Shown in pieces: positions 5,457 to 53,400 of a DNA stretch of 64,000 bases. Source of the stretch: Pseudovibrio brasiliensis. GTDB taxonomy: Bacteria > Pseudomonadota > Alphaproteobacteria > Rhizobiales > Stappiaceae. The notes under the pieces were generated by a model. It made no database searches. It saw nothing but the letters and a program-made list of their open reading frames with translations, and had not been told where the DNA came from. Made by a program: the position numbers and the translations under genes. The stretch covers positions 3,452,341 to 3,516,340 of the forward strand of contig NZ_CP074126.1 of the NCBI RefSeq assembly GCF_018282095.1. The letters are read 5' to 3'. Position 1 is the first letter of the stretch, and every line of letters begins with the position of its first letter.

Positions 5457-6275
5457 TCAGCCTTCGCTGCTCTCAGACGATTTATCGTCAATCTGATAAG
5501 GCGCAAGCACCTTCTTGGTTTTTTCTGGCAAGTTCCGTCCCCAACCAGCATCGAGTTTGTGATCAACAGACACGCGGTCATCAAACACAAAGCACTCACC
5601 TTTCCAGAGACTCTCCTCTTCAGGCACTTTCTCTAGATAGTTCAGAATGCCACCTTCAAGGTGGTAAACCTCATCAAAGCCCTGCTCCAGCATCAGGCCA
5701 GTCGCCCGCTCACAGCGAATGCCTCCGGTACAGAACATGGCAACTTTCTTCTTGGTGCGCAGAGAGTTGTCGTTGCGTTTGACCCACTCAGGAAACTCGT
5801 TGAACGTTTCCGTTTCGGGATCAAGAGCACCCTCAAACGTGCCCAGCGCAAACTCATAATCATTGCGTGTATCAATCACGACCGTCTCTGGATCAGAGAT
5901 CAGCGCATTCCAGTCCTCTGGTTTCACATAGGTGCCAACAAGATCATTTGGATCAATATGATTGAGGCCCATGTTCACGATGGCTTTCTTCAACCGCACC
6001 TTCATGCGCTTGAACGGAAGCTTCTTCGCCCAGCTTTCCTTAACGATGATATCGTCAAATCGTGGATCATTGCGCAAATACGCAATCACTTCACGCATCT
6101 GCTGCTCTTCACCAGCGATGGTGCCGTTGATGCCCTCACGGGCAATAAGAAGACTGCCGCGAATGCCTCGCTCCTTACAGAATGCAAGCAGCGGTTCGCG
6201 CATGTCTTCGTAGTCTGCAAACTCAACAAACTTATAGAGCGCACAGACCAAAATGGGGGTCAGTGTAGGTGTCAT
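5457..6275 (-). CDS. trhO: tRNA uridine(34) hydroxylase, rhodanese domain (TrhO/YceA family)
   Basis: The 272-residue protein belongs to the oxygen-dependent tRNA U34 hydroxylases that start 5-oxyacetyluridine wobble modification. An N-terminal acylphosphatase-like domain (residues 5-100, [10 protein letters not shown]) is followed by a rhodanese domain ([20 protein letters not shown]). The active-site loop is [11 protein letters not shown], with catalytic Cys182 and a second Cys188. I chose the ATG at 6275 because it gives the family N-terminus; an ATG at 6317 is possible. It sits between the lactonase gene and the R-body locus, with a terminator on each side, so it is probably transcribed alone. 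Confidence 0.92.
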
Positions 6276-6355
6276 TCTCAGCCTTTTGGCATTATTCGTG
6301 AGAATACCTATACTCATTTCCCCCCTGTCTGTCAGCAAGAGAGACTCTCCCAAAA

Positions 6356-6389
6356 CGACAAAACCTCCCCTACCGAGGCAGGGAAGGTT
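6356..6389 (-). terminator. Probable terminator of the R-body gene cluster
   Basis: On the minus strand, AACCTTCCCT (6389-6380) pairs with AGGGGAGGTT (6371-6362), ten pairs with one G-U. The stem is followed by a T-rich but interrupted tail. It lies downstream of the last reb gene and upstream of trhO. Confidence 0.5.
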
Positions 6390-6444
6390 CCGGAGCAAGC
6401 TGCCCATTGTATCATCAGACTCCAGATTTTCCGGAGAGTGGTGA

Positions 6445-6765
6445 TTACCGCGGACGGAAAGCTTCCACGATAGTGAGCAGAGTTTGCAACTGATCTGGCG
6501 TACCAGCCTGAGCAACTTTTTCCGTTGCCCCAGCTGCTGCCATGGTGTCCATGGAGTAGATCTGCATGACACCCTGGTTAGTGGCTGCTTGAGCCAGCGT
6601 ATTCTGCTGCTGAGCTGCAGCTACGTTATTCTCAAAGAGAATTCCGGTGGAATGTGCCATAGTCTGAAACAGCGACCCCATTGCCATGGCAGGTGCTTCT
6701 GCAACCACCTTCACATTCGCCTGGGTCACAGCGTCTGTGATCATTGGACTAACCGTATCTGGCAT
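6445..6765 (-). CDS. RebB-family R-body structural protein (copy 1)
   Basis: The 106-residue protein is a RebB-type subunit. These proteins polymerise into R-bodies, insoluble ribbons that coil inside the cell and can unroll to burst membranes. The family core is clear: [20 protein letters not shown], then [21 protein letters not shown], then [14 protein letters not shown] set the start at the third in-frame ATG (6765), because AAGGA lies eight bases upstream and the protein then has the same length as its neighbour at 6911. The two are very alike at both protein and DNA level, pointing to recent duplication. It is the last gene of the minus-strand reb cluster. Confidence 0.9.
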
Positions 6766-6910
6766 AGTCATCATCCTTCAATACAAAAGAGAGAGGTCGT
6801 GTCCGGTGGCCTTGCAGAGAACCACCAAGGGCATGCCCAACTGAAAACCAACCGGACACCATTAAACAGCAGTTTGAGAAAACGCCGCCGGACGGCGACG
6901 CCAGAACCTA

Positions 6911-7231
6911 TTAGGTCGGGTTGAATACGCGCAGAATTGTCAGCAGCGTGTTCAGCTGATCTGGTGTGCCGCTCTGAGCAACTTTTTCGGTAGCACCAGC
7001 ACCAGCCATCGTATCCATGGAGTAGATCTGCATAACTCCCTGGTTAGCTGCAGCCTGAGAAAGAATGTTCTGCTGCTGTGCTGCAGAAACATAGTTCTCA
7101 AAGAGAATTCCGGTGGAATGAGCCATTGTCTGATAGACGCTGCCCATTGCCATTGCAGGGGCTTCACCAACCACCTTTACGTTGGACTGGGTAACGGCAT
7201 CAGTGATCATTGGGCTAACAGTAGTTGGCAT
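6911..7231 (-). CDS. RebB-family R-body structural protein (copy 2)
   Basis: The 106-residue RebB-type protein is nearly identical in layout to copy 1: [20 protein letters not shown], then [20 protein letters not shown], then [20 protein letters not shown] and a short hydrophobic tail. AGAGGAC precedes the ATG at normal spacing. R-body ribbons usually need several RebA/RebB-like subunits of this size, so tandem copies may adjust subunit ratio. Spacers of about 145-158 bp separate it from its neighbours, larger than typical within an operon, and contain inverted repeats. The family assignment is firm; the toxic or structural role in this host is inferred. Confidence 0.92.
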   Translation of the reverse strand: MPTTVSPMITDAVTQSNVKVVGEAPAMAMGSVYQTMAHSTGILFENYVSAAQQQNILSQAAANQGVMQIYSMDTMAGAGATEKVAQSGTPDQLNTLLTILRVFNPT

Positions 7232-7389
7232 TCTAATAGTCCTCTTTCATACAGTTCTGGTCAAAATCCGGTTCTGCTTTTCCTTGAACTGGCTCCAAAG
7301 GAGTACGCACTACTACAACTGAAAGGATGCATCAGAACCATTCTCATCGCTCTGGCCTTGCACCAGAAAGCGAAGCTCGAAAGTTCCGG

Positions 7390-7731
7390 TTATTGATTGA
7401 AACTACGCAAGGTAGTCAGCAGCGTGGTCAGCTGATCAGATGTCCCGATCTGAGCAACCTTTTCCGTGGCCGATGCTCCGGCCATTGTGTTGACTGAATA
7501 GATTTGCATGACGCCCTGATTGGTCGTCGCTTGTGCAAGAGTTGAAAATTGAGAAGCCGCCGCAACGGAGTTTTGAAAGAGAATGCCCGTTGAATGTGCC
7601 AGGGATGCATAAAGGTTCCCCATTGCAATGGCTGGCGCTTCCCCAATCACCGCCACATTGGTTTGCGTCACAGCATCCGTCACCATGCCATCCTCTGGTA
7701 TTACGGGACCAATCCCCGGTAGATCCGCCAT
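7390..7731 (-). CDS. RebB-family R-body structural protein (copy 3)
   Basis: The 113-residue RebB-type protein has a short extra N-terminus (MADLPGIGPVIPEDG) before the core [40 protein letters not shown] and [20 protein letters not shown] follow. The ATG at 7731 is preceded by GGGAG eight bases upstream. An upstream TTG-type extension to 7797 adds a cysteine-rich stretch without family support, so I left it out. The Shine-Dalgarno lies inside an 11-base segment that is exactly complementary to a segment just upstream in the mRNA (7877-7887), suggesting translational control of this copy. Confidence 0.9.
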   Translation of the reverse strand: MADLPGIGPVIPEDGMVTDAVTQTNVAVIGEAPAIAMGNLYASLAHSTGILFQNSVAAASQFSTLAQATTNQGVMQIYSVNTMAGASATEKVAQIGTSDQLTTLLTTLRSFNQ

Positions 7732-7734
7732 AAA

Positions 7735-7887
7735 GTCACTCCCACCTGAACAACCGAACTCAAGAGCAATTCGGCAAAAAACGCAGCCCTGCTTCACCCC
7801 TGATCAGGCACAGGCAGTGCACTGACCAGAGGCAAACTCTCAATGATTTAGAAAACTGGAAAAGCCTTCCCGAAATGTGGGAGTGAC
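7735..7887 (-). promoter_or_regulatory. Long-range inverted repeat covering the ribosome site of RebB copy 3
   Basis: GTCACTCCCAC (7735-7745) and GTGGGAGTGAC (7877-7887) are exact reverse complements, 11 bp, spanning nearly the whole spacer. In the mRNA, the downstream arm contains the GGGAG site just before the ATG at 7731. Pairing would hide that site. Confidence 0.5.
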
Positions 7888-7900
7888 CTTTCACTACGCT

Positions 7901-8242
7901 TTAACGCGAAAAGTACCGACGCAATGTTTCAAGCAAACTTTCATTCACCTGCTCGATCTCTTGCGGATCCATATGCGAAATGCTGTTTGCGGCAGCCATG
8001 GAACCAACAGAATAAGTATGCAAAATTCCCTGGCTCAACGCCGTCTGTGCAATGATGTTCTGGCGCTGTGCATTCGCGACAGAATTCTCAAAAAGCACCC
8101 CCGTTGATTGCGCCGCTGTAAGAAAGGTGAGCCCCAGCGCAAACGCTGGCGCTACTCCCAGAAGGGCAATGATATCAGCATCAACGGCTCCGCCATCGGA
8201 GGGTTTTGTTGAGCCACATTGTTCCTCAATAGTCTTTGGCAT
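7901..8242 (-). CDS. Divergent RebB-family protein (copy 4)
   Basis: The 113-residue protein keeps the RebB pattern but is the most divergent of the small copies. An N-terminal arm (MPKTIEEQCGSTKPSDGGAV) replaces the usual TDAVTQ segment. DIIALLGVAPAFALGLTFLT and AAQSTGVLFENSVANAQRQN match the core, and QGILHTYSVGSMAAANSISH replaces QGVMQIYS. The C-terminus is longer and charged (LETLRRYFSR), and a Cys at residue 9 is unusual. GGAG precedes the ATG. Divergence suggests a distinct position in the ribbon or a capping or assembly function; that is speculation. Confidence 0.8.
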   Translation of the reverse strand: MPKTIEEQCGSTKPSDGGAVDADIIALLGVAPAFALGLTFLTAAQSTGVLFENSVANAQRQNIIAQTALSQGILHTYSVGSMAAANSISHMDPQEIEQVNESLLETLRRYFSR

Positions 8243-8360
8243 TTTTTCTCCAATATGCTTGTTATTATTGCCATTTACAGACTATTGACGCCGCTCCTTC
8301 TCATTTGTGAACTCTTTCCTAAGAGCCTCACGTCTCGCTAAGGTTTCCTTCACACTTCCC

Positions 8361-9014
8361 TCAACGATCACGAGATCGCTGCTGCAGATACCCGATCAGA
8401 AGCTCAGAGAGCTTCTCGTTGAGAGGCCCAATCTGCTTGGAAATCTCCGAGTTGATCTCTTTCTTCAGATAATCCCTCAAGGCTTCCGCCACCTGCACGG
8501 CCATCATTTCCTGATTGGCAACACCACCCTGAACCGGCTGCCCAGTCATCGGAAACTGAGCCACTCCAGCGCCAGCCTGAGGCGGTGGCGCACCCTGCCC
8601 CGGCGCCAATTGTGGTGGCGGCTGGACCGGAGGCGTCTGCGGTGTTTGCACCTCCGCCTGCTCACTCCCTGTGCCAATCACGCTCTTGATCGTATTGATC
8701 TCTTCATCAATAGAGGTACACAGCTTGGCCGCGGCCTGCTCCACCTCTGACACAATGCTCTGAGCTGATGTGGTGGCATCTTCACAGGCCCTGTTGATCT
8801 GCGCCTGCTGCTGTCGGATCTCCGCAACCACTTCATTGTAGTTGGGAATGCCCTGACGCAGCTGAGCAAACTCGCTGGCCGCCTGATCCACATTCTCCTT
8901 CACCTTGGTGAGCTGCACCACAGCATCATCCAGCGCAGAGTTGAGCTCCGGCCCCGGTGTTGCCGTTACCTTCTGCGGACCAGCGCCTTGCGTTCCATTC
9001 ACGGCTGTACTCAT
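8361..9014 (-). CDS. Coiled-coil/proline-rich protein of the R-body locus, unknown function
   Basis: I do not recognise this 217-residue protein as a named family. Residues 25-115 are predicted helical with heptad-like spacing (QLTKVKENVDQAASEFAQLR), Cys in NRACEDATTS and KLCTSIDEE. Residues 120-165 are a Pro/Gln/Gly-rich linker (TPPVQPPPQLAPGQGAPPPQ). A C-terminal helix (EALRDYLKKEINSEISKQIG) ends the chain. No signal peptide or membrane segment is visible. AGGAG sits eight bases before the ATG at 9014, favouring it over the GTG at 9029. It is co-directional with the reb genes, only 23 bp from the next gene, so a role in R-body assembly or cell attachment is plausible but unproven. Confidence 0.75.
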   Translation of the reverse strand: MSTAVNGTQGAGPQKVTATPGPELNSALDDAVVQLTKVKENVDQAASEFAQLRQGIPNYNEVVAEIRQQQAQINRACEDATTSAQSIVSEVEQAAAKLCTSIDEEINTIKSVIGTGSEQAEVQTPQTPPVQPPPQLAPGQGAPPPQAGAGVAQFPMTGQPVQGGVANQEMMAVQVAEALRDYLKKEINSEISKQIGPLNEKLSELLIGYLQQRSRDR

Positions 9015-9037
9015 CGCCCCACTCCTCACGTCCTGCT

Positions 9038-9454
9038 TTACCAGTTGTAGTCAGAGTTCCGGTCCGGCCCGCGATCCTCGCTCCGCTCTTCAAACTCGAT
9101 GTCACCAGTCGAGGTAAACCGCGCAAGGAGCTCCTCTTCGACGCCATCCTGCATCAATCGCTCTTCATCATCCCGGTCGTCATACCGGTCTGCATCTTCC
9201 TGAAGCCGCTCATCCCGAAACCCAAGCACCAGATCCGCCGCCGAAATCTCGCCCTCACTACCAAGCATCCCTTCAGCCTTCACCAAAGCATCTCGCGCCA
9301 GGCTCAGGTGGCACAACATCCCTGGCAGCCCCTCAACGCCAGACCGGGACAATGTTCGCACTTCTTCCTGCTCGATAACCCCTTCCCAGCGGCGCAACTG
9401 ATTGAGGATCACCTCCTCCAATTCCTCTCGAATGTATGTAACGTCCCGTTCCAT
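9038..9454 (-). CDS. Small acidic protein of the R-body locus, unknown function
   Basis: The 138-residue protein is strongly acidic and probably helical (MERDVTYIREELEEVILNQL; later DERLQEDADRYDDRDDEERL). The middle, GVEGLPGMLCHLSLARDALV, is more hydrophobic. The C-terminus contains RFTSTGDIEFEERSEDRGPD. No domain is recognised. It lies between two other unfamiliar reb-locus proteins with spacings of 23 and 30 bp, clearly one transcription unit. The charge pattern would suit a chaperone-like or regulatory partner of the aggregation-prone RebB proteins; this is inference from composition and context only. Confidence 0.7.
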   Translation of the reverse strand: MERDVTYIREELEEVILNQLRRWEGVIEQEEVRTLSRSGVEGLPGMLCHLSLARDALVKAEGMLGSEGEISAADLVLGFRDERLQEDADRYDDRDDEERLMQDGVEEELLARFTSTGDIEFEERSEDRGPDRNSDYNW

Positions 9455-9484
9455 ATCTCACCTTTTGAGCTGACAGGGGTCTGC

Positions 9485-9658
9485 TTATCGCGTCAGAGCC
9501 CGAAGAAAAGTCGCAAGCAAAATGTAGTCTCGTTGAAACAACCGCGTGATCTCCCGAACCAACTCCGCCAGTTCATCCACCTCCACATCATCCGGCTCAG
9601 ACCGAACATCTGCAGCAGCTTCAAAGCCATAACGGGGTCGTTCAGCACGAGCGCTCAT
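9485..9658 (-). CDS. Very small protein of the R-body locus
   Basis: This 57-residue protein (MSARAERPRYGFEAAADVRS at its start, ending DYILLATFLRALTR) has an acidic middle and an amphipathic hydrophobic C-terminal helix. I chose the ATG at 9658, because GGAGAAGG lies immediately upstream; a GTG at 9685 would extend it by nine residues and overlap the previous stop. No family is recognised. Its place in the middle of the unbroken minus-strand cluster, with tight spacing on both sides, argues that it is real and co-expressed with the reb genes. Confidence 0.6.
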   Translation of the reverse strand: MSARAERPRYGFEAAADVRSEPDDVEVDELAELVREITRLFQRDYILLATFLRALTR

Positions 9659-9677
9659 CCATCCTTCTCCCGGCAGA

Positions 9678-10394
9678 TCACTCACTCACCTCCTGAAAGG
9701 CAGAGATCGCATTGGTCACCATGGTGTTAAGCTCAGTCAGCGCCGGCGTTGCCGCAAGTGCCGGATCCTGCGCAATCTTGGCTGCCACAATCGCCTGGGC
9801 TGCCATGGAGATCTGCATAACCCCGTTCATGTAAGTCTCTGCATCCTGCGAGGCATGCCCACTGGACTGCTTGGTCATCACGTCTTCAGGCACCGAAATC
9901 ATGGTCTCCAGACCCTGAAAGTTCTGGAAGTTCGTGAACTGGACAGCCTGAGTGATCTGATCATTCAAAGCAGGTGTCGAGGGCGCAGTGGTTGGCAACG
10001 GAGGATAGGATGGGCCTGACGATTTTTCCGATCCCTTGCTGGCTGCTGCACCCTGGGGCTGTTCGCCTGCACCGCCTGAACCAGTAGCAGCCTCAAAGCC
10101 AGCACCGCCAGCAGATCCCTTTTCACTATCCATGACCATGGTTTGTTGCGCTCCGGATTGACTATTGCTCTCACTTGCTGGGTTGACGGCTTGCTGTTCC
10201 GCCTGTGAGGACATTTTGACTGCCGGGGAGGATTGCTTCACATCCTGTGTTCTGGATGCAGCAGTGGCCTGAGTTGAGGAACGCAAACTATTATCACTCA
10301 TAGGCCCTTGGAGCAGAGAGATCATGCGCCGACGACGCGTAATCGCATTCTCATACTCTTGAGAAGCTGTACTCTCACCTCTCTCCCTCACCAT
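9678..10394 (-). CDS. Large RebB-like protein with disordered N-terminus
   Basis: The 238-residue protein has two parts. Residues 1-145 are low-complexity, rich in Ser, Gln, Ala and Gly, with a basic patch near residue 20 (ITRRRRMISLL). The C-terminal 90 residues resemble a RebB core (ALNDQITQAVQFTNFQNFQ; later AETYMNGVMQISMAAQAIVA), with an insertion between the halves. The start is uncertain: the ATG at 10394 follows AGGGAATTTG, while an ATG at 10301 would remove the basic part. It lies 12 bp after the first reb gene. It could be a long ribbon subunit, analogous to the extra Reb proteins in other R-body systems, but that is inferred. Confidence 0.75.
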   Translation of the reverse strand: MVRERGESTASQEYENAITRRRRMISLLQGPMSDNSLRSSTQATAASRTQDVKQSSPAVKMSSQAEQQAVNPASESNSQSGAQQTMVMDSEKGSAGGAGFEAATGSGGAGEQPQGAAASKGSEKSSGPSYPPLPTTAPSTPALNDQITQAVQFTNFQNFQGLETMISVPEDVMTKQSSGHASQDAETYMNGVMQISMAAQAIVAAKIAQDPALAATPALTELNTMVTNAISAFQEVSE

Positions 10395-10408
10395 CAAATT
10401 CCCTCAAA

Positions 10409-10669
10409 CTAGCCACCTGAAGGTTTAGACTCTGCGCCAGATGTTGGGCCAATTTCCATAATGAGCTGCACGCCCTTGGAAACCACCGCTGTCGAGATCT
10501 GGTTCATAGATTGCTGGGCATGGGTCGCATTCTGCACCGAGAGCCCCGTTGCATTACTAACCACCTGATACAAATTAGCAATTGCCTGAGAGGGTGCCTC
10601 GCCCACCACCTTCACATTTGTCTGGGTAACGGCATCCGTCACCTGAGCATTTACAGTCTCTTCCGCCAT
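10409..10669 (-). CDS. RebB-family R-body structural protein (copy 5, short)
   Basis: The 86-residue protein is the shortest family member here, carrying VTDAVTQTNVKVVGEAPSQA, then YQVVSNATGLSVQNATHAQQ and STAVVSKGVQLIMEIGPTSG, with a truncated tail. STGILFEN of the other copies is replaced by ATGLSVQN, so it is a separate subtype. GAGGG precedes the ATG. It is the first structural gene after the sigma factor (76-bp gap) and its stop is 14 bp from the start of the next gene, so expression with the large RebB-like protein is expected. Confidence 0.88.
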   Translation of the reverse strand: MAEETVNAQVTDAVTQTNVKVVGEAPSQAIANLYQVVSNATGLSVQNATHAQQSMNQISTAVVSKGVQLIMEIGPTSGAESKPSGG

Positions 10670-10745
10670 GCTAGTGCCCTCGCAGTCTGAAATCGTTAAC
10701 TATTCGGAGAGACGCACTCACATCCCTCCTGTGAACACAATCTGA

Positions 10746-11327
10746 TCAATTGAACCGTCTGCGCTTCTTCTTGCGCGCATCCCGCAGCTTTTCACGCAGG
10801 AACTGCACCCGCTTACGCGCCAGAGCCTGAGAGATGTTCAGCTCCTCCGAGATGTCGCTGTAACTGCGATCCTCGGCAAACTTGAGAGAGAAAATCTGCT
10901 GGTAGATGACAGGCAGCCGCTCCAGCGTTTTGCCAATCAGTGCAAGCTCTTCCTTTTGCGCCAACAGAACTTCTTGCGGTGCCGCTTCCGCTTCAGCATT
11001 GGCAAGGTGCTCATCATAAACATCCTTTTCACCATCCCTGAACTGATACTCATAGCGCTTCTTGCGATACTGGCTGATGAACTCGTTCTTGAGCGCATAC
11101 ATGAAGAACGCAATCGGCTCCCGCATATTCAGGGGGCGCTGCTCAAAGTGAGACGCCACCTTGATGATAGTTGCTGACATCAGCTCCTCAGCAGCATCCA
11201 TGTCACCACCCGTAAGATGAAACGCCCTGCCAAAAATCTTTTTTCTATGCTCGTTCCAGTATTTCCAAACAGGCGTTAGATCCTGACGCCCATCAAGATG
11301 TTCAAGTCGTGTATTCTTGTAATACAT
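10746..11327 (-). CDS. Sigma-70 family RNA polymerase sigma factor heading the R-body cluster
   Basis: The 193-residue protein has the two-domain layout of ECF-type sigma factors. Region 2 spans about residues 19-95 (FGRAFHLTGGDMDAAEELMS, then FFMYALKNEFISQYRKKRYE). Region 4 spans about 125-180 (TLERLPVIYQQIFSLKFAED, then YSDISEELNISQALARKRVQ), ending in a basic tail (RKKKRRRFN). I set the start at 11327, with GAGG eight bases upstream. No anti-sigma gene is adjacent, so activity may be controlled by its own transcription. Position at the 5' end of the minus-strand cluster suggests it switches on the reb genes; sigma-factor genes are known neighbours of reb genes in other proteobacteria. Confidence 0.88.
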   Translation of the reverse strand: MYYKNTRLEHLDGRQDLTPVWKYWNEHRKKIFGRAFHLTGGDMDAAEELMSATIIKVASHFEQRPLNMREPIAFFMYALKNEFISQYRKKRYEYQFRDGEKDVYDEHLANAEAEAAPQEVLLAQKEELALIGKTLERLPVIYQQIFSLKFAEDRSYSDISEELNISQALARKRVQFLREKLRDARKKKRRRFN

Positions 11328-11336
11328 CCGCCACAC

Positions 11337-11783
11337 CTCAATGTATTACAGACAAACCTCCAGATAATTTCAGCTGGACATCACATCAGGTACAGCGTCA
11401 CTGTCCCAGCGCTCTGACATCAACTTTATTTCGAGAGAAATTGTCCGTTTCGATACGATTGACGCTACGGATATTCTTGTTCTCGGAAAACCAACGCAAT
11501 TTTACGGGTTGTATAAATTGATGCTTACAACCTTTAGTAAAAGCACTCAAACCAACCAAAAAAGTTTGATACGCTCCAGATACTTACGCCACTTCGCCGT
11601 ACACACTTTGCAGATTTACAACACAACCTGAAACACGATGCGCGCCTGTTAACAACCTATAAGGTGTAATTCTAAACCTCACACAACCCGGAAAAGGCAT
11701 AAGGCCAATCTCATAGACCGAGTTTCACCCTGCCCTTAATAGACAGCCCAACTCTCATTTTGTGACATGGCCGATTCTGGAAA
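11337..11783. other. A+T-rich intergenic region upstream of the sigma factor gene
   Basis: No gene is seen in these 447 bp. The region must hold the promoter of the sigma factor and possibly of the whole reb cluster on the minus strand. The 3' end of the ATPase gene borders it. I could not pick a reliable promoter or an ECF-type GGAAC element. Confidence 0.4.
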
Positions 11784-12332
11784 TTAAGTCTGAAGCGCTC
11801 TCTCAGCCTGCTCAGCCACAAACCCGCCGCGCTCTTCAACTGGCATCTGCGGCACCTCAATCAGCTCGTATCCAAACGCTCGATAGACAGCAACATTCGC
11901 TTCAAAGTCGCGACAAGCAAACTCAAAATCGTGCGTCCGCTCCGCGTCACTCTCAAAGATCTGTTCCCATGGCGCACAAACAAACACCGGATCCGCAAAC
12001 CTCCTCACGCGGACAGCTGCAATCATCTCCTCTGATACAGGAGCCCCAATGATCCTGCTATACGCGATGGCCTCCAGAAAGCTGCGATCGTGAAACACCA
12101 GAGCATCTGGCGAACTTGGGTCAACATCAAAAGCTTCGACTGAGCGTTCAAACAGCAAATCCCGAAAAGCAACTACGTCCTTATCAGGAAGAGCCACTCC
12201 ACCTGACACCATTTGCTCACGCACCACTTGCCGCCCAACCTCCTCCCGGCAGTCGTACCCAAGCATCTGTAAAGAGTGCAACAATGTAGATTTTCCGGCA
12301 CCAGACGCACCAGTAATAACAAAACGCGGCAT
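11784..12332 (-). CDS. AAA-type P-loop ATPase/kinase-like protein
   Basis: The 182-residue protein begins MPRFVITGASGAGKSTLLHS, a Walker A motif at residues 8-15. VFHDRSFLEAIAYSRIIGAP and FVCAPWEQIFESDAERTHDF follow, resembling the AAA_28 group of small nucleotide-binding proteins (predicted kinases or phosphotransferases of unknown substrate). It is on the same strand as the sigma factor but ends 447 bp before it, so joint transcription is unlikely. It lies just downstream of two tRNA-Lys genes. The P-loop assignment is firm and the biological role unknown. Confidence 0.8.
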   Translation of the reverse strand: MPRFVITGASGAGKSTLLHSLQMLGYDCREEVGRQVVREQMVSGGVALPDKDVVAFRDLLFERSVEAFDVDPSSPDALVFHDRSFLEAIAYSRIIGAPVSEEMIAAVRVRRFADPVFVCAPWEQIFESDAERTHDFEFACRDFEANVAVYRAFGYELIEVPQMPVEERGGFVAEQAERALQT

Positions 12333-12471
12333 GAGACCTCGCTAAGACACGAACAGCAAAATTCAATCAAGGAAATCGAAGAGAAAGAGGCGAGCAGCAG
12401 AAACAAGCTACACACAAGTATCACAGGTTTAAAAGCCTTTGTGAAACAGTCACCAATTTTCGGGGAGAAAA

Positions 12472-12547
12472 TGGTGAGCCCGCACGGGTTCGAACCGTGG
12501 ACCTACTGATTAAAAGTCAGTTGCTCTACCAGCTGAGCTACGGGCTC
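12472..12547 (-). tRNA. tRNA-Lys (anticodon TTT)
   Basis: The cloverleaf reads on the minus strand: acceptor GAGCCCG paired with CGGGCTC, anticodon stem-loop CTGACTTTTAATCAG, T-arm CACGGTTCGAACCCGTG, discriminator A and an encoded CCA. Length is 76. It is 17 bp downstream of a second tRNA-Lys. Confidence 0.97.
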
Positions 12548-12564
12548 ACATGACGTGATACGCT

Positions 12565-12640
12565 TGGTGGGTGCACAGGGATTCGAACCCGGGACCGTCT
12601 GATTAAGAGTCAGATGCTCTACCAACTGAGCTATACACCC
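12565..12640 (-). tRNA. tRNA-Lys (anticodon CTT)
   Basis: The cloverleaf reads on the minus strand: acceptor GGGTGTA against TGCACCC (one G-U), anticodon stem-loop CTGACTCTTAATCAG, T-arm CCCGGGTTCGAATCCC, discriminator A and encoded CCA. It is the promoter-proximal gene of the tandem lysine pair. Confidence 0.97.
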
Positions 12641-12668
12641 AAACGTTTCCCGCCGAAGCGATGGCGGG

Positions 12669-12697
12669 TGTATATAAAGCCTTTTGCGAGAGCGCAA
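12669..12697 (-). promoter_or_regulatory. Promoter of the tRNA-Lys pair
   Basis: On the minus strand TTGCGC, a 17-base spacer and TATACA precede a G+C-rich stretch (CCCGCC), as in stringently controlled stable-RNA promoters. The predicted start is about 20 bases before the first tRNA. Confidence 0.65.
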
Positions 12698-13137
12698 GGC
12701 CCTAACTGCAACTTTTCAAAAATGTCTTGTGTAAAGTAAACTTATCCCAGACTAACCTATGCAAATCTACGAATTTTGGCAGCACAAATACAATTCCAAA
12801 GTGTGAAACGCGAAAAAACAATCCAGTTTGAGGTTGTTAGCCCTGTTAGTAATTAGTCCAACACCCGCTCCACGCTAAAATTGTGCTGTTCCCTCCTACA
12901 CCGGCAAACAGGAGCGGTAGGACACCGCACTGCAACCGAAAGACATAAGACGTCACCGCACTGCAAAATCGCACAATTCTGCGGGTTCTCCAAAGCGCAC
13001 CAAATGCACCGGCAGAACCTGATGCAAACACGACGAGCATCTTCTGACGTTGCGCAACTTTCGCAAAGCGCCCCGACACTTGCAGATAACTCAAGAAAAC
13101 AAGAGGTCATTGCGGCGCAACATTAAGAAGAAGCCAC
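12698..13137. other. Gene-free intergenic region with a short direct repeat
   Basis: No coding sequence is supported; overlapping short frames have no family resemblance. CACCGCACTGCAA occurs twice (12923-12935 and 12954-12966), 31 bp apart, upstream of the ilv promoter. Confidence 0.4.
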
Positions 13138-53048: not shown

Positions 53049-53054
53049 TGCACC

Positions 53055-53060
53055 TATATT
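53055..53060 (+). promoter_or_regulatory. Possible -10 element of the ssrA gene
   Basis: TATATT at 53055-53060 would place transcription start near 53067, which gives an acceptor piece of about 80 bases. The matching -35 is weak. Confidence 0.35.
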
Positions 53061-53066
53061 CCCCCT

Positions 53067-53400
53067 GCCAGTTCGCTGGCTACGGCAATAAATTGCGAGC
53101 GCAATAAACCATTCGGACCCGGGGGCGGTACCCGGCGCCTCCACCAAAGCCCGTTGTACTCCAGCGGTCTTCGGGGGGGCGAAACAGGATCGACGAGGGC
53201 GTAAAGGCTTTGCTTTTGCTCGGCATGGTACCACCGTTATCGGACCAAAATGATAGTTGCAAATGACAACTACGCTATGGACAACGCTGTAGCTGCGTAA
53301 TGCAGTTCCGGTAGTCCACTAAGTCCCGTTGGTTAGCACCTTCAGGCGGGGTTCGGAGGCACCTGGCAACAGAAGCCTCCACTTTAGTGTTAAAAGGCTC
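53067..53400 (+). ncRNA. ssrA: Transfer-messenger RNA, circularly permuted two-piece form
   Basis: The gene is permuted as in other alphaproteobacteria. The acceptor piece comes first and ends CGCCTCC-A-CCA at 53136-53146, with the stem CCGGG/CCCGG before it. After a spacer of about 28 bases, removed on processing, the coding piece begins GGGGGCG (53175-53181), which pairs with the acceptor 3' strand, then GAAACAGGATCGACGAGGG. The tag reading frame runs 53259-53300 and encodes ANDNYAMDNAVAA followed by TAA. The molecule rescues stalled ribosomes and tags the unfinished protein for proteolysis. The exact 5' and 3' ends are approximate. sspB, the adaptor for tagged proteins, is the next gene. 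Confidence 0.95.

What the first reader, a model, noticed from the sequence alone, without database searches (positions are those of the whole stretch)
6445..11327. R-body locus headed by a sigma factor
Nine minus-strand genes form one block: five small RebB-type proteins, one larger RebB-like protein with a disordered N-terminus, three unfamiliar proteins, and a sigma-70-type sigma factor at the 5' end. RebB proteins are known to assemble into coiled ribbons in Caedibacter and Azorhizobium. The combination and the number of copies make this an unusually complete reb cluster. It might be a contractile killing or host-interaction device under its own sigma factor.
Basis: partly seen in the sequence, partly recalled or inferred. 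Interest (0 to 1): 0.85.

Follow-up and report, generated by a model that had tools for sequence, protein, structure and literature searches.

The report
R-body cluster with dedicated sigma factor
A Pseudovibrio bacterium carries a full set of genes for R-bodies, coiled protein ribbons known in relatives to spring open inside eukaryotic cells, together with a sigma factor whose likely promoter sites stand before the ribbon genes and before one small, probably exported protein; the cluster is of a known kind, the switch and the extra gene are new leads.

Summary
Window 6445-11327 (minus strand) carries ten genes, not nine: an ECF sigma factor, five RebB-family (PF11747) genes, a RapA-type protein and three unnamed genes, one doubtful. 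The host is a Pseudovibrio. This is a Group 2 reb cluster, as published for Labrenzia alexandrii (R-bodies seen) and P. aeruginosa PA14: a new member of a known kind.

The sigma idea is supported. The sigma resembles that of Pseudomonas reb clusters (PA14 FecI2 is needed for rebP1 expression). It occurs in 36 of 38 reb+ and 0 of 83 reb- genomes among relatives. A motif, TTCAC(A/G)-N15-CGT(C/T), lies before reb1 and reb2 here, at the sigma, reb1 or a later reb gene in 34 of 36 sigma+ family loci, and in 42 of 42 loci from other genera; two family loci with reb but no sigma lack it. RcgA, PA14's second activator, was not found in family loci.

New: such a site stands 82-85 bp before a small, probably exported cysteine-rich protein gene in 10 of 10 Pseudovibrio carrying it. 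Nine of them have the five-Reb cluster; one (G006, 94% complete) shows no reb. Ribbons, sigma dependence and targets here are inferred.

The parts
10746..11327 (-). ECF-type sigma factor, same family as the sigma genes of Pseudomonas reb clusters (FecI2 position)
   Evidence: TIGR02937 5.3e-18; 31% over 159 aa to the sigma of the P. karstica reb cluster
10711..10736 (-). predicted sigma-dependent promoter of reb1: GTTCACA-N14-GCGTC
   Evidence: a TTCAC-N16-CGTC site before reb1 in 15 of 15 Pseudovibrio reb loci
10409..10669 (-). reb1, RebD-type short Reb protein (86 aa)
   Evidence: PF11747 4.9e-27; 74% over 69 aa to Pseudomonas RebD
9678..10397 (-). RapA / 'S4' protein: disordered N-terminal part, helical C-terminal part
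   Evidence: no Pfam match; 51% over 68 aa to the Pseudomonas RapA-position protein; in 36 of 36 sigma+ family loci
9485..9685 (-). small ORF (66 aa), doubtful gene
   Evidence: matches in 6 of 38 loci only; overlaps the preceding gene by 8 bases
9038..9454 (-). acidic protein (138 aa, net charge -22), unknown
   Evidence: no Pfam/NCBIfam match; in 15 of 15 Pseudovibrio reb loci and 0 of the 21 other sigma+ family loci; relatives in Inquilinus and one alphaproteobacterial MAG
8361..9029 (-). long-helix protein (222 aa); size and place fit a HP2 protein of Raymann et al.
   Evidence: 36 of 36 sigma+ family loci; low-confidence model: helix 28-121, disordered linker, helix 170-221, mean pLDDT 65
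8287..8312 (-). predicted sigma-dependent promoter of reb2 and the structural reb genes: GTTCACA-N14-GCGTC
   Evidence: site at this place in 15 of 15 Pseudovibrio reb loci
7901..8242 (-). reb2, divergent Reb protein (113 aa)
   Evidence: PF11747 1.3e-11; 33% to RebP2
7390..7731 (-). reb3, RebP-type
   Evidence: PF11747 1.2e-24; 63-65% to RebP2/RebP1
6911..7231 (-). reb4, RebP-type
   Evidence: PF11747 9.4e-28; 71% to RebP2
6799..6859 (-). large hairpin in front of reb5 (arms GTGTCCGGT / ACCGGACAC)
   Evidence: 6775-6910 folds with z = -3.44 (0 of 200 shuffles as stable); partly conserved in the alignment of 9 Pseudovibrio
6445..6774 (-). reb5, RebP-type
   Evidence: PF11747 1.1e-27; 70% to RebP2
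11319..11349 (-). 9-bp inverted repeat over the sigma start codon (function unknown)
   Evidence: arms GTAATACAT / ATGTATTAC; arm changes among 9 genomes keep a pair or G-U (read by eye); folding z only -1.05
11742..11766 (-). degenerate copy of the motif (GTCACA-N15-TGTC) 439 nt upstream of the sigma gene
   Evidence: 8 of 10 positions match; same place (-436 to -439) in 9 of 9 close Pseudovibrio; no chance estimate was made

Best explanation
The locus is a Group 2 (FecI2-type) R-body gene cluster of a Pseudovibrio. The sigma factor, once made, directs RNA polymerase to promoters of the form TTCACA-N15-CGTC: one before reb1 (reading on through the RapA-type and unnamed genes), one before the structural reb genes reb2-reb5, and probably a third, elsewhere in the genome, before a small exported protein. 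RebP-type proteins (reb3, reb4, reb5, perhaps reb2) polymerise into a coiled ribbon with the RapA-type protein attached; the ribbon extends inside a eukaryote that has taken the cell up, breaks the cell open and releases its contents. Shown here: gene content, homology, co-occurrence of sigma and reb, and the motif. Shown by others in relatives: FecI2-dependent rebP1 expression and R-body formation (PA14), R-bodies in L. alexandrii. Inferred: that the sigma recognises the motif, that ribbons form here, and what they act on.
For: PF11747 on five genes, the only five found in the genome. Sigma, short reb, S4, 222-aa type and a further reb together in 36 of 36 sigma+ family genomes. Sigma at E<1e-30 in 36 of 38 reb+ and 0 of 83 reb- genomes (own included); in a class-wide draw in 8 of 15 reb+ and 1 of 370 reb- (own included). 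TTCAC-N16-CGTC in 36 loci: 65 forward, 3 reverse; at most 2 forward at any other spacer from 10 to 23. The 27 loci not used to notice it: 47 forward. 63 of 65 sites lie at sigma, reb1 or the first later reb. TTCAC[AG]-N15-CGT[CT]: 66 against a shuffle mean of 1.7 (max 8) in the family, 102 against 1.7 (max 5) in 42 distant loci. FecI2 needed for PrebP1 in PA14 (PMC8322103, passages).
Against: No transcription or microscopy data for this organism. G018 and G023 (Pannonibacter) have the sigma but no site even under the looser patterns tried. G046 and G052 have the last genes inverted. The sigma gene itself has only a degenerate upstream site in the close Pseudovibrio. G226 of the class draw has the sigma without a reb match; one search scored at most 8 candidates a genome, so its misses are soft. 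Reverse-strand counts at other spacers reach 9, and the nine close loci give 5 forward at spacer 25. The motif is not enriched over the whole genome (9 matches, reversed control 16). Sigma identity to the Pseudomonas protein is 31%. Kinship among genomes is not corrected for.
Confidence: 0.85

Rival explanations
1. A reb cluster whose genes are driven mainly by other regulators (a CRP-like RcgA/RebR protein or a PraR-like repressor acting from elsewhere), the sigma being a passenger.
For: In PA14 both RcgA and FecI2 are needed (PMC8322103); in A. caulinodans PraR and RebR rule (PMC5527310, passages). The roughly 450 bp upstream of the sigma hold several conserved blocks, so further regulators are likely.
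Against: No RcgA-like frame at E<=1e-4 in 38 of 38 family loci as fetched; own-genome hits are of generic CRP/FNR level (best 2.6e-10, 26% identity, much the same in the reb- genome G006, 3.2e-10). The motif sits before the reb genes themselves. PraR was not searched for.
Confidence: 0.1
2. A decayed or silent reb cluster that no longer makes R-bodies.
For: Only three papers with both words were found; the passages seen in them report no ribbons in Pseudovibrio.
Against: All ten frames are open; a site before reb1 and before the later reb genes is kept in 15 of 15 Pseudovibrio reb loci; reb4 and reb5 remain 71 and 70% identical to a Pseudomonas RebP.
Confidence: 0.06
3. Reb proteins here form a storage or structural polymer with no part in attack on eukaryotes.
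For: No toxin gene is recognisable by Pfam or NCBIfam in the cluster; C. taeniospiralis killing needs more than the reb genes (PMC3583457, passages).
Against: In PA14 and A. caulinodans R-bodies damage eukaryotic hosts (PMC8322103, PMC5527310, passages). The sponge symbiont Pseudovibrio sp. JE062 has reb genes and its free-living relative FO-BEG1 does not (PMC3583457, passage).
Confidence: 0.2
4. The site before the small exported protein is read by another ECF sigma factor with a like promoter, not by the R-body sigma.
For: G006 keeps the gene and the site although neither reb nor the sigma was found in it.
Against: G006 is 94% complete and the cluster's neighbouring gluconolactonase gene was not found there either (best 38%), so the cluster may be unassembled. 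The gene was found in no other genome of 121 outside the nine with the five-Reb cluster.
Confidence: 0.35

Closest known systems
reb cluster of Labrenzia alexandrii DFL-11 (PMC3764935, passages read)
   Same: ECF sigma, a reb gene, four hypothetical genes, then further reb genes; R-bodies seen by TEM
   Different: three RebB-family genes there, five here; no promoter motif in the passages read
P. aeruginosa PA14 reb cluster with rcgA, fecI2, rebD, rapA and rebP1P2 (PMC8322103, passages read)
   Same: sigma, RebD, RapA and RebP types; sigma required for rebP1 there
   Different: no RcgA gene found here; five instead of three Reb proteins; the 138- and 222-aa types were not found in the Pseudomonas loci examined
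Group 2 synteny of Raymann et al. 2013 (PMC3583457, passages read)
   Same: two ~205-220 aa hypothetical proteins and a sigma factor beside reb genes; Pseudovibrio JE062 named as reb+
   Different: the HP2.4 cyclic-nucleotide regulator, frequent there, was not found here
A. caulinodans reb operon (PMC5527310, passages read)
   Same: several Reb proteins in one cluster, R-bodies shown
   Different: regulated by PraR and RebR; the word sigma does not occur in its main text

Membership tests
R-body (reb) locus | RebB-domain (PF11747) proteins in a cluster | tested here: met
   five over cut-off, the only five found in the genome
R-body (reb) locus | coiled, extendable ribbons in cells | not testable with these tools
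   needs electron microscopy
Group 2 / FecI2-type reb cluster | sigma factor beside reb genes | tested here: met
   36 of 38 reb+ genomes among relatives
Group 2 / FecI2-type reb cluster | two hypothetical proteins of about 205-220 aa | tested here: inconclusive
   239- and 222-aa types in 36 of 36 loci fit in size and place; the sequences of HP2.1 and HP2.2 were not held for comparison
Group 2 / FecI2-type reb cluster | RapA (S4) protein | tested here: met
   51% over 68 aa to the Pseudomonas protein between rebD and rebP; that this gene is rapA rests on its position as described in PMC8322103
Group 2 / FecI2-type reb cluster | cyclic-nucleotide/CRP regulator (HP2.4, RcgA); described as frequent, not universal | tested here: not met
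   0 of 38 family loci as fetched, against 26 of 42 distant loci; no specific homologue in own genome
FecI-type sigma with an adjacent FecR-type anti-sigma (recalled) | adjacent membrane anti-sigma/regulator | tested here: not met
   no such Pfam match in the cluster or the upstream AAA_28 gene; of the 11 proteins measured only reb2 has a strongly hydrophobic stretch (KD19 2.17, next 1.28)

The most novel reading that the evidence does not exclude
The sigma is a one-purpose R-body sigma whose promoter, TTCAC(A/G)-N15-CGT(C/T), has stayed with it in Alpha-, Beta- and Gammaproteobacteria, a portable switch that in the Pseudovibrio family works without RcgA. In the five-Reb Pseudovibrio clade the same switch also drives an unlinked gene for a small exported protein with seven cysteines, which would be made together with the ribbons and could be a partner or cargo released when they extend.
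Probability: 0.35. Interest if true: 0.65.

Novelty: new member of a known kind. Interest (0 to 1): 0.5.

Why it matters
How bacteria decide to make R-bodies is little known outside PA14 and Azorhizobium, and what is released with them is an old open question. A sigma factor with a sharply spaced promoter turns both into simple tests: which genes carry the motif, what feeds the sigma, and whether the one unlinked gene with a conserved site has a part in what R-bodies do. It also lets reb clusters and their regulons be read from sequence, and gives a marine case without RcgA to compare with PA14.

Tried and rejected
Other genome-wide sites: TTCACA-N15-CGTC has 9 matches in the own genome, against 16 for the reversed control, so the genome as a whole is not enriched. 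Two are the cluster sites. Of the other 7, 5 lie inside open frames of more than 120 aa (L210, L211, L213, L217, L218) and 2 do not (L212, L214). L214 is the small exported protein. L212 lies about 465 bp before a porin-like gene, with like-placed sites in 2 of 4 other Pseudovibrio (L231, L233; 30 of 48 matches were held as loci); too weak to claim.

A dedicated RcgA in Pseudovibrio: only generic CRP/FNR hits. Solved structures by sequence: none for reb4 or the small protein. Pfam and NCBIfam on the small protein: none. Rfam on 5500-13000: only the two tRNAs passed the gathering score. The two structure models are of low confidence (mean pLDDT 56 and 65, pTM 0.20 and 0.30), so no fold search was run. 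RNA folding: the reb5 leader stands out (z -3.44), the sigma start (-1.05) and the reb4 leader (0.73) do not. In one search the rhodanese-protein flank was translated in a wrong frame; its rows are not used. Alignments used part of what was held: A3 26 of 36 sigmas, A2 34 of 36, A4 33 locus rows of the 71 S4 matches and A5 30 of the 34 hp222 matches.
Full report
What is there. The window is bases 3,452,341-3,516,340 of contig 1 of a 6.03 Mb genome. At this locus its nearest named relatives are Pseudovibrio sp. Ad37, P. ascidiaceicola and Pseudovibrio sp. Alg231-02 (83% on the RapA-type protein), so the host is a Pseudovibrio; the species was not determined. Between 6445 and 11327, all on the minus strand, stand ten open frames. 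Five match PF11747 over its cut-off, the only five found in the genome. The first gene is an ECF sigma factor.

Which reb cluster it is. Compared with a Pseudomonas (P. karstica, L128) reb cluster, reb1 matches RebD best (74%), reb4 and reb5 match RebP2 (71 and 70%), reb3 is 63-65% to RebP2 and RebP1, reb2 is divergent (33% to RebP2), the 239-aa protein matches the gene in the rapA position (51% over 68 aa) and the sigma matches the sigma (31% over 159 aa). The names fecI2, rebD, rapA and rebP come from PMC8322103 (passages) by gene position; PA14 sequences were not held. The same survey names Pseudovibrio among reb-bearing symbionts.

Relatives. Of 121 genomes (own and 120 relatives), 38 have RebB over the cut-off and one more, G093, below it. 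The sigma is found at E below 1e-30 in 36 of the 38 and in none of the other 83; ten of those 83 give weak hits between 4.0e-7 and 8.5e-6, with a limit of 1e-5 (Fisher p = 9e-29, kinship not corrected for). The two reb+ genomes without it, G025 and G030, are of one genus. All 36 have sigma, a short reb, the 239-aa type, the 222-aa type and at least one further reb; in 34 the order is that of the window, in G046 and G052 the 222-aa type and the last reb are inverted. The 138-aa gene is in the 15 Pseudovibrio and in none of the other 21, with relatives in Inquilinus and one MAG. In a draw of 385 genomes of the class, 15 have RebB over the cut-off, G294 marginally, and 9 have the sigma profile at E up to 1e-15; 8 of these 9 are reb+, own genome included, and in 7 of the 8 the sigma lies within about 0.6 kb of a reb gene, in G148 17 kb off. 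A gluconolactonase gene lies near the cluster in 35 of 36, which fits inheritance at a fixed place in the family rather than recent arrival.

The promoter. An alignment of upstream regions of nine close Pseudovibrio showed the same spaced words before reb1 and reb2, GTTCACA-N14-GCGTC, at window 10711-10736 and 8287-8312; with two mismatches allowed the window has 5 matches, no more than shuffles give (mean 5.6), but only these two are exact. As TTCAC-N16-CGTC in 36 loci, spacing 16 gives 65 forward and 3 reverse matches; other spacers from 10 to 23 give at most 2 forward, though up to 9 reverse. The 27 loci not used in noticing it give 47 forward (15 + 32), at most 2 at other spacers in either subset; the nine close loci give 18, and 5 at spacer 25. 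Of the 65 sites, 26 lie before the first reb that follows the 222-aa gene, 23 before reb1, 14 at the sigma start, 2 elsewhere. In the form TTCAC[AG]-N15-CGT[CT], 34 of 36 loci have a site at one of these places; G018 and G023 have none. G025 and G030, reb+ without the sigma, have none.

Beyond the family. A scan with the 239-aa protein gave 71 named loci. Setting aside 29 from Pseudovibrio, Roseibium, Labrenzia, Pannonibacter and one unnamed alphaproteobacterium whose contig is that of G068, 42 remain (Pseudomonas, Lysobacter, Luteimonas, Xanthomonas, Inquilinus, Dyella, Burkholderia, an Azoarcus MAG and other MAGs). In 40 of 42 a sigma and a short reb precede S4; the other two (L134, L155) start at or just before S4; 39 have a further reb behind it in the stretch held. 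The strict form TTCAC-N16-CGTC, fixed beforehand, gives 37 forward and 0 reverse, in 22 of 42 loci. In Pseudomonas and Lysobacter the last letter is T; allowing T and G there was fitted to these loci. With that, 42 of 42 loci have a site, 102 in all against a shuffle mean of 1.7, before reb1 in 38 of 40 and before the first later reb in 38 of 39, measured back from the gene ends (180-450 and 270-620 bases); in the Burkholderia loci L161 and L162 the only site lies further upstream. The motif thus was noticed in one genus and held in other classes, and lies before the gene whose expression in PA14 needs FecI2. A FecI2 motif was derived in PA14 (PMC4362757, passages); it is in a figure that is not held, so I cannot say whether it is the same. 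The listings showed no paper whose title or abstract start concerns a reb promoter motif across genera.

A gene outside the cluster. The only own-genome match outside open frames with a gene start close behind is at C1:3230640 (L214), 82 bp before a 125-aa protein. The gene is present in 10 of 121 genomes: the nine Pseudovibrio with five Reb matches, and G006; the six Pseudovibrio with three Reb matches lack it. In 10 of 10 a TTCACA-N15-CGTC site stands 82-85 bp before the start, while most of the 15 spacer bases vary. The protein begins with what looks by eye like an export signal (no predictor was run), keeps seven cysteines in all ten and matches nothing in Pfam, NCBIfam or the PDB sequences. 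Against a simple link: G006 has gene and site, yet no reb or sigma was found there; its assembly is 94% complete and the cluster's neighbour gene is missing too.

What differs from PA14. An RcgA-like gene lies in 26 of 42 distant loci and 0 of 38 family loci as fetched, and the own genome has only generic CRP-like hits. In the nine close Pseudovibrio the sigma has no clear site of its own but a degenerate one 436-439 nt upstream, at the head of a region with several conserved blocks; in 14 other genomes, two of them Pseudovibrio, a good site lies at the sigma start, which suggests autoregulation there.

How it most likely works. The sigma is made under a signal read by its upstream region; it opens promoters at reb1, reb2 and probably the small-protein gene; Reb proteins polymerise, with RapA attached as in PA14; ribbons extend after uptake by a eukaryote. 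The first step is unknown, the second rests on motif and homology, the last two on work in relatives. No gene of the cluster matches a toxin family. In PA14, delivery of a separate ribonuclease by R-bodies is discussed as one possibility (PMC13189344, passages).

Verdict. A real and well-formed R-body cluster, of a type described from close relatives in 2013. The sigma-promoter pair and the unlinked gene with a conserved site are the useful additions.

Noticed in passing
L214:1066-1443 (own genome C1:3230208-3230582, minus strand): Small, probably exported 125-aa protein with seven cysteines and a TTCACA-N15-CGTC site 82 bp before its start, kept in 10 of 10 Pseudovibrio that carry it.
   Followed up: partly
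window 11319-11349 and 11328-11783: A 9-bp inverted repeat spans the sigma start codon, and the ~450 bp upstream of the gene holds several blocks conserved in nine Pseudovibrio (such as GGTTGTTAACAGG).
   Followed up: partly
window 6799-6859: A large stable hairpin precedes reb5 (z -3.44 for 6775-6910); perhaps mRNA processing or stability.
   Followed up: partly
L212 about 1501 (own genome C1:1162396): A TTCACA-N15-CGTC site in an intergenic stretch some 465 bp before a porin-like gene, with like-placed sites in two other Pseudovibrio (L231, L233).
   Followed up: partly
window 11784-12332: AAA_28 NTPase gene directly upstream of the sigma; matches (E<=1e-10) in 8 of the 9 close Pseudovibrio loci, own included, and in none of the other stretches held.
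   Followed up: no
window 12472-12640 and 53051-53391: Two tRNA-Lys genes (ttt, ctt) in tandem beside the cluster; a tmRNA gene further on.
   Followed up: no
G226:C60:32232-32753 (L204): A genome of the class draw has the reb-type sigma without any RebB match.
   Followed up: no
G064:C16:97-606: A second, broken copy of the sigma (one stop inside) besides the intact one in the reb cluster of the same genome.
   Followed up: no
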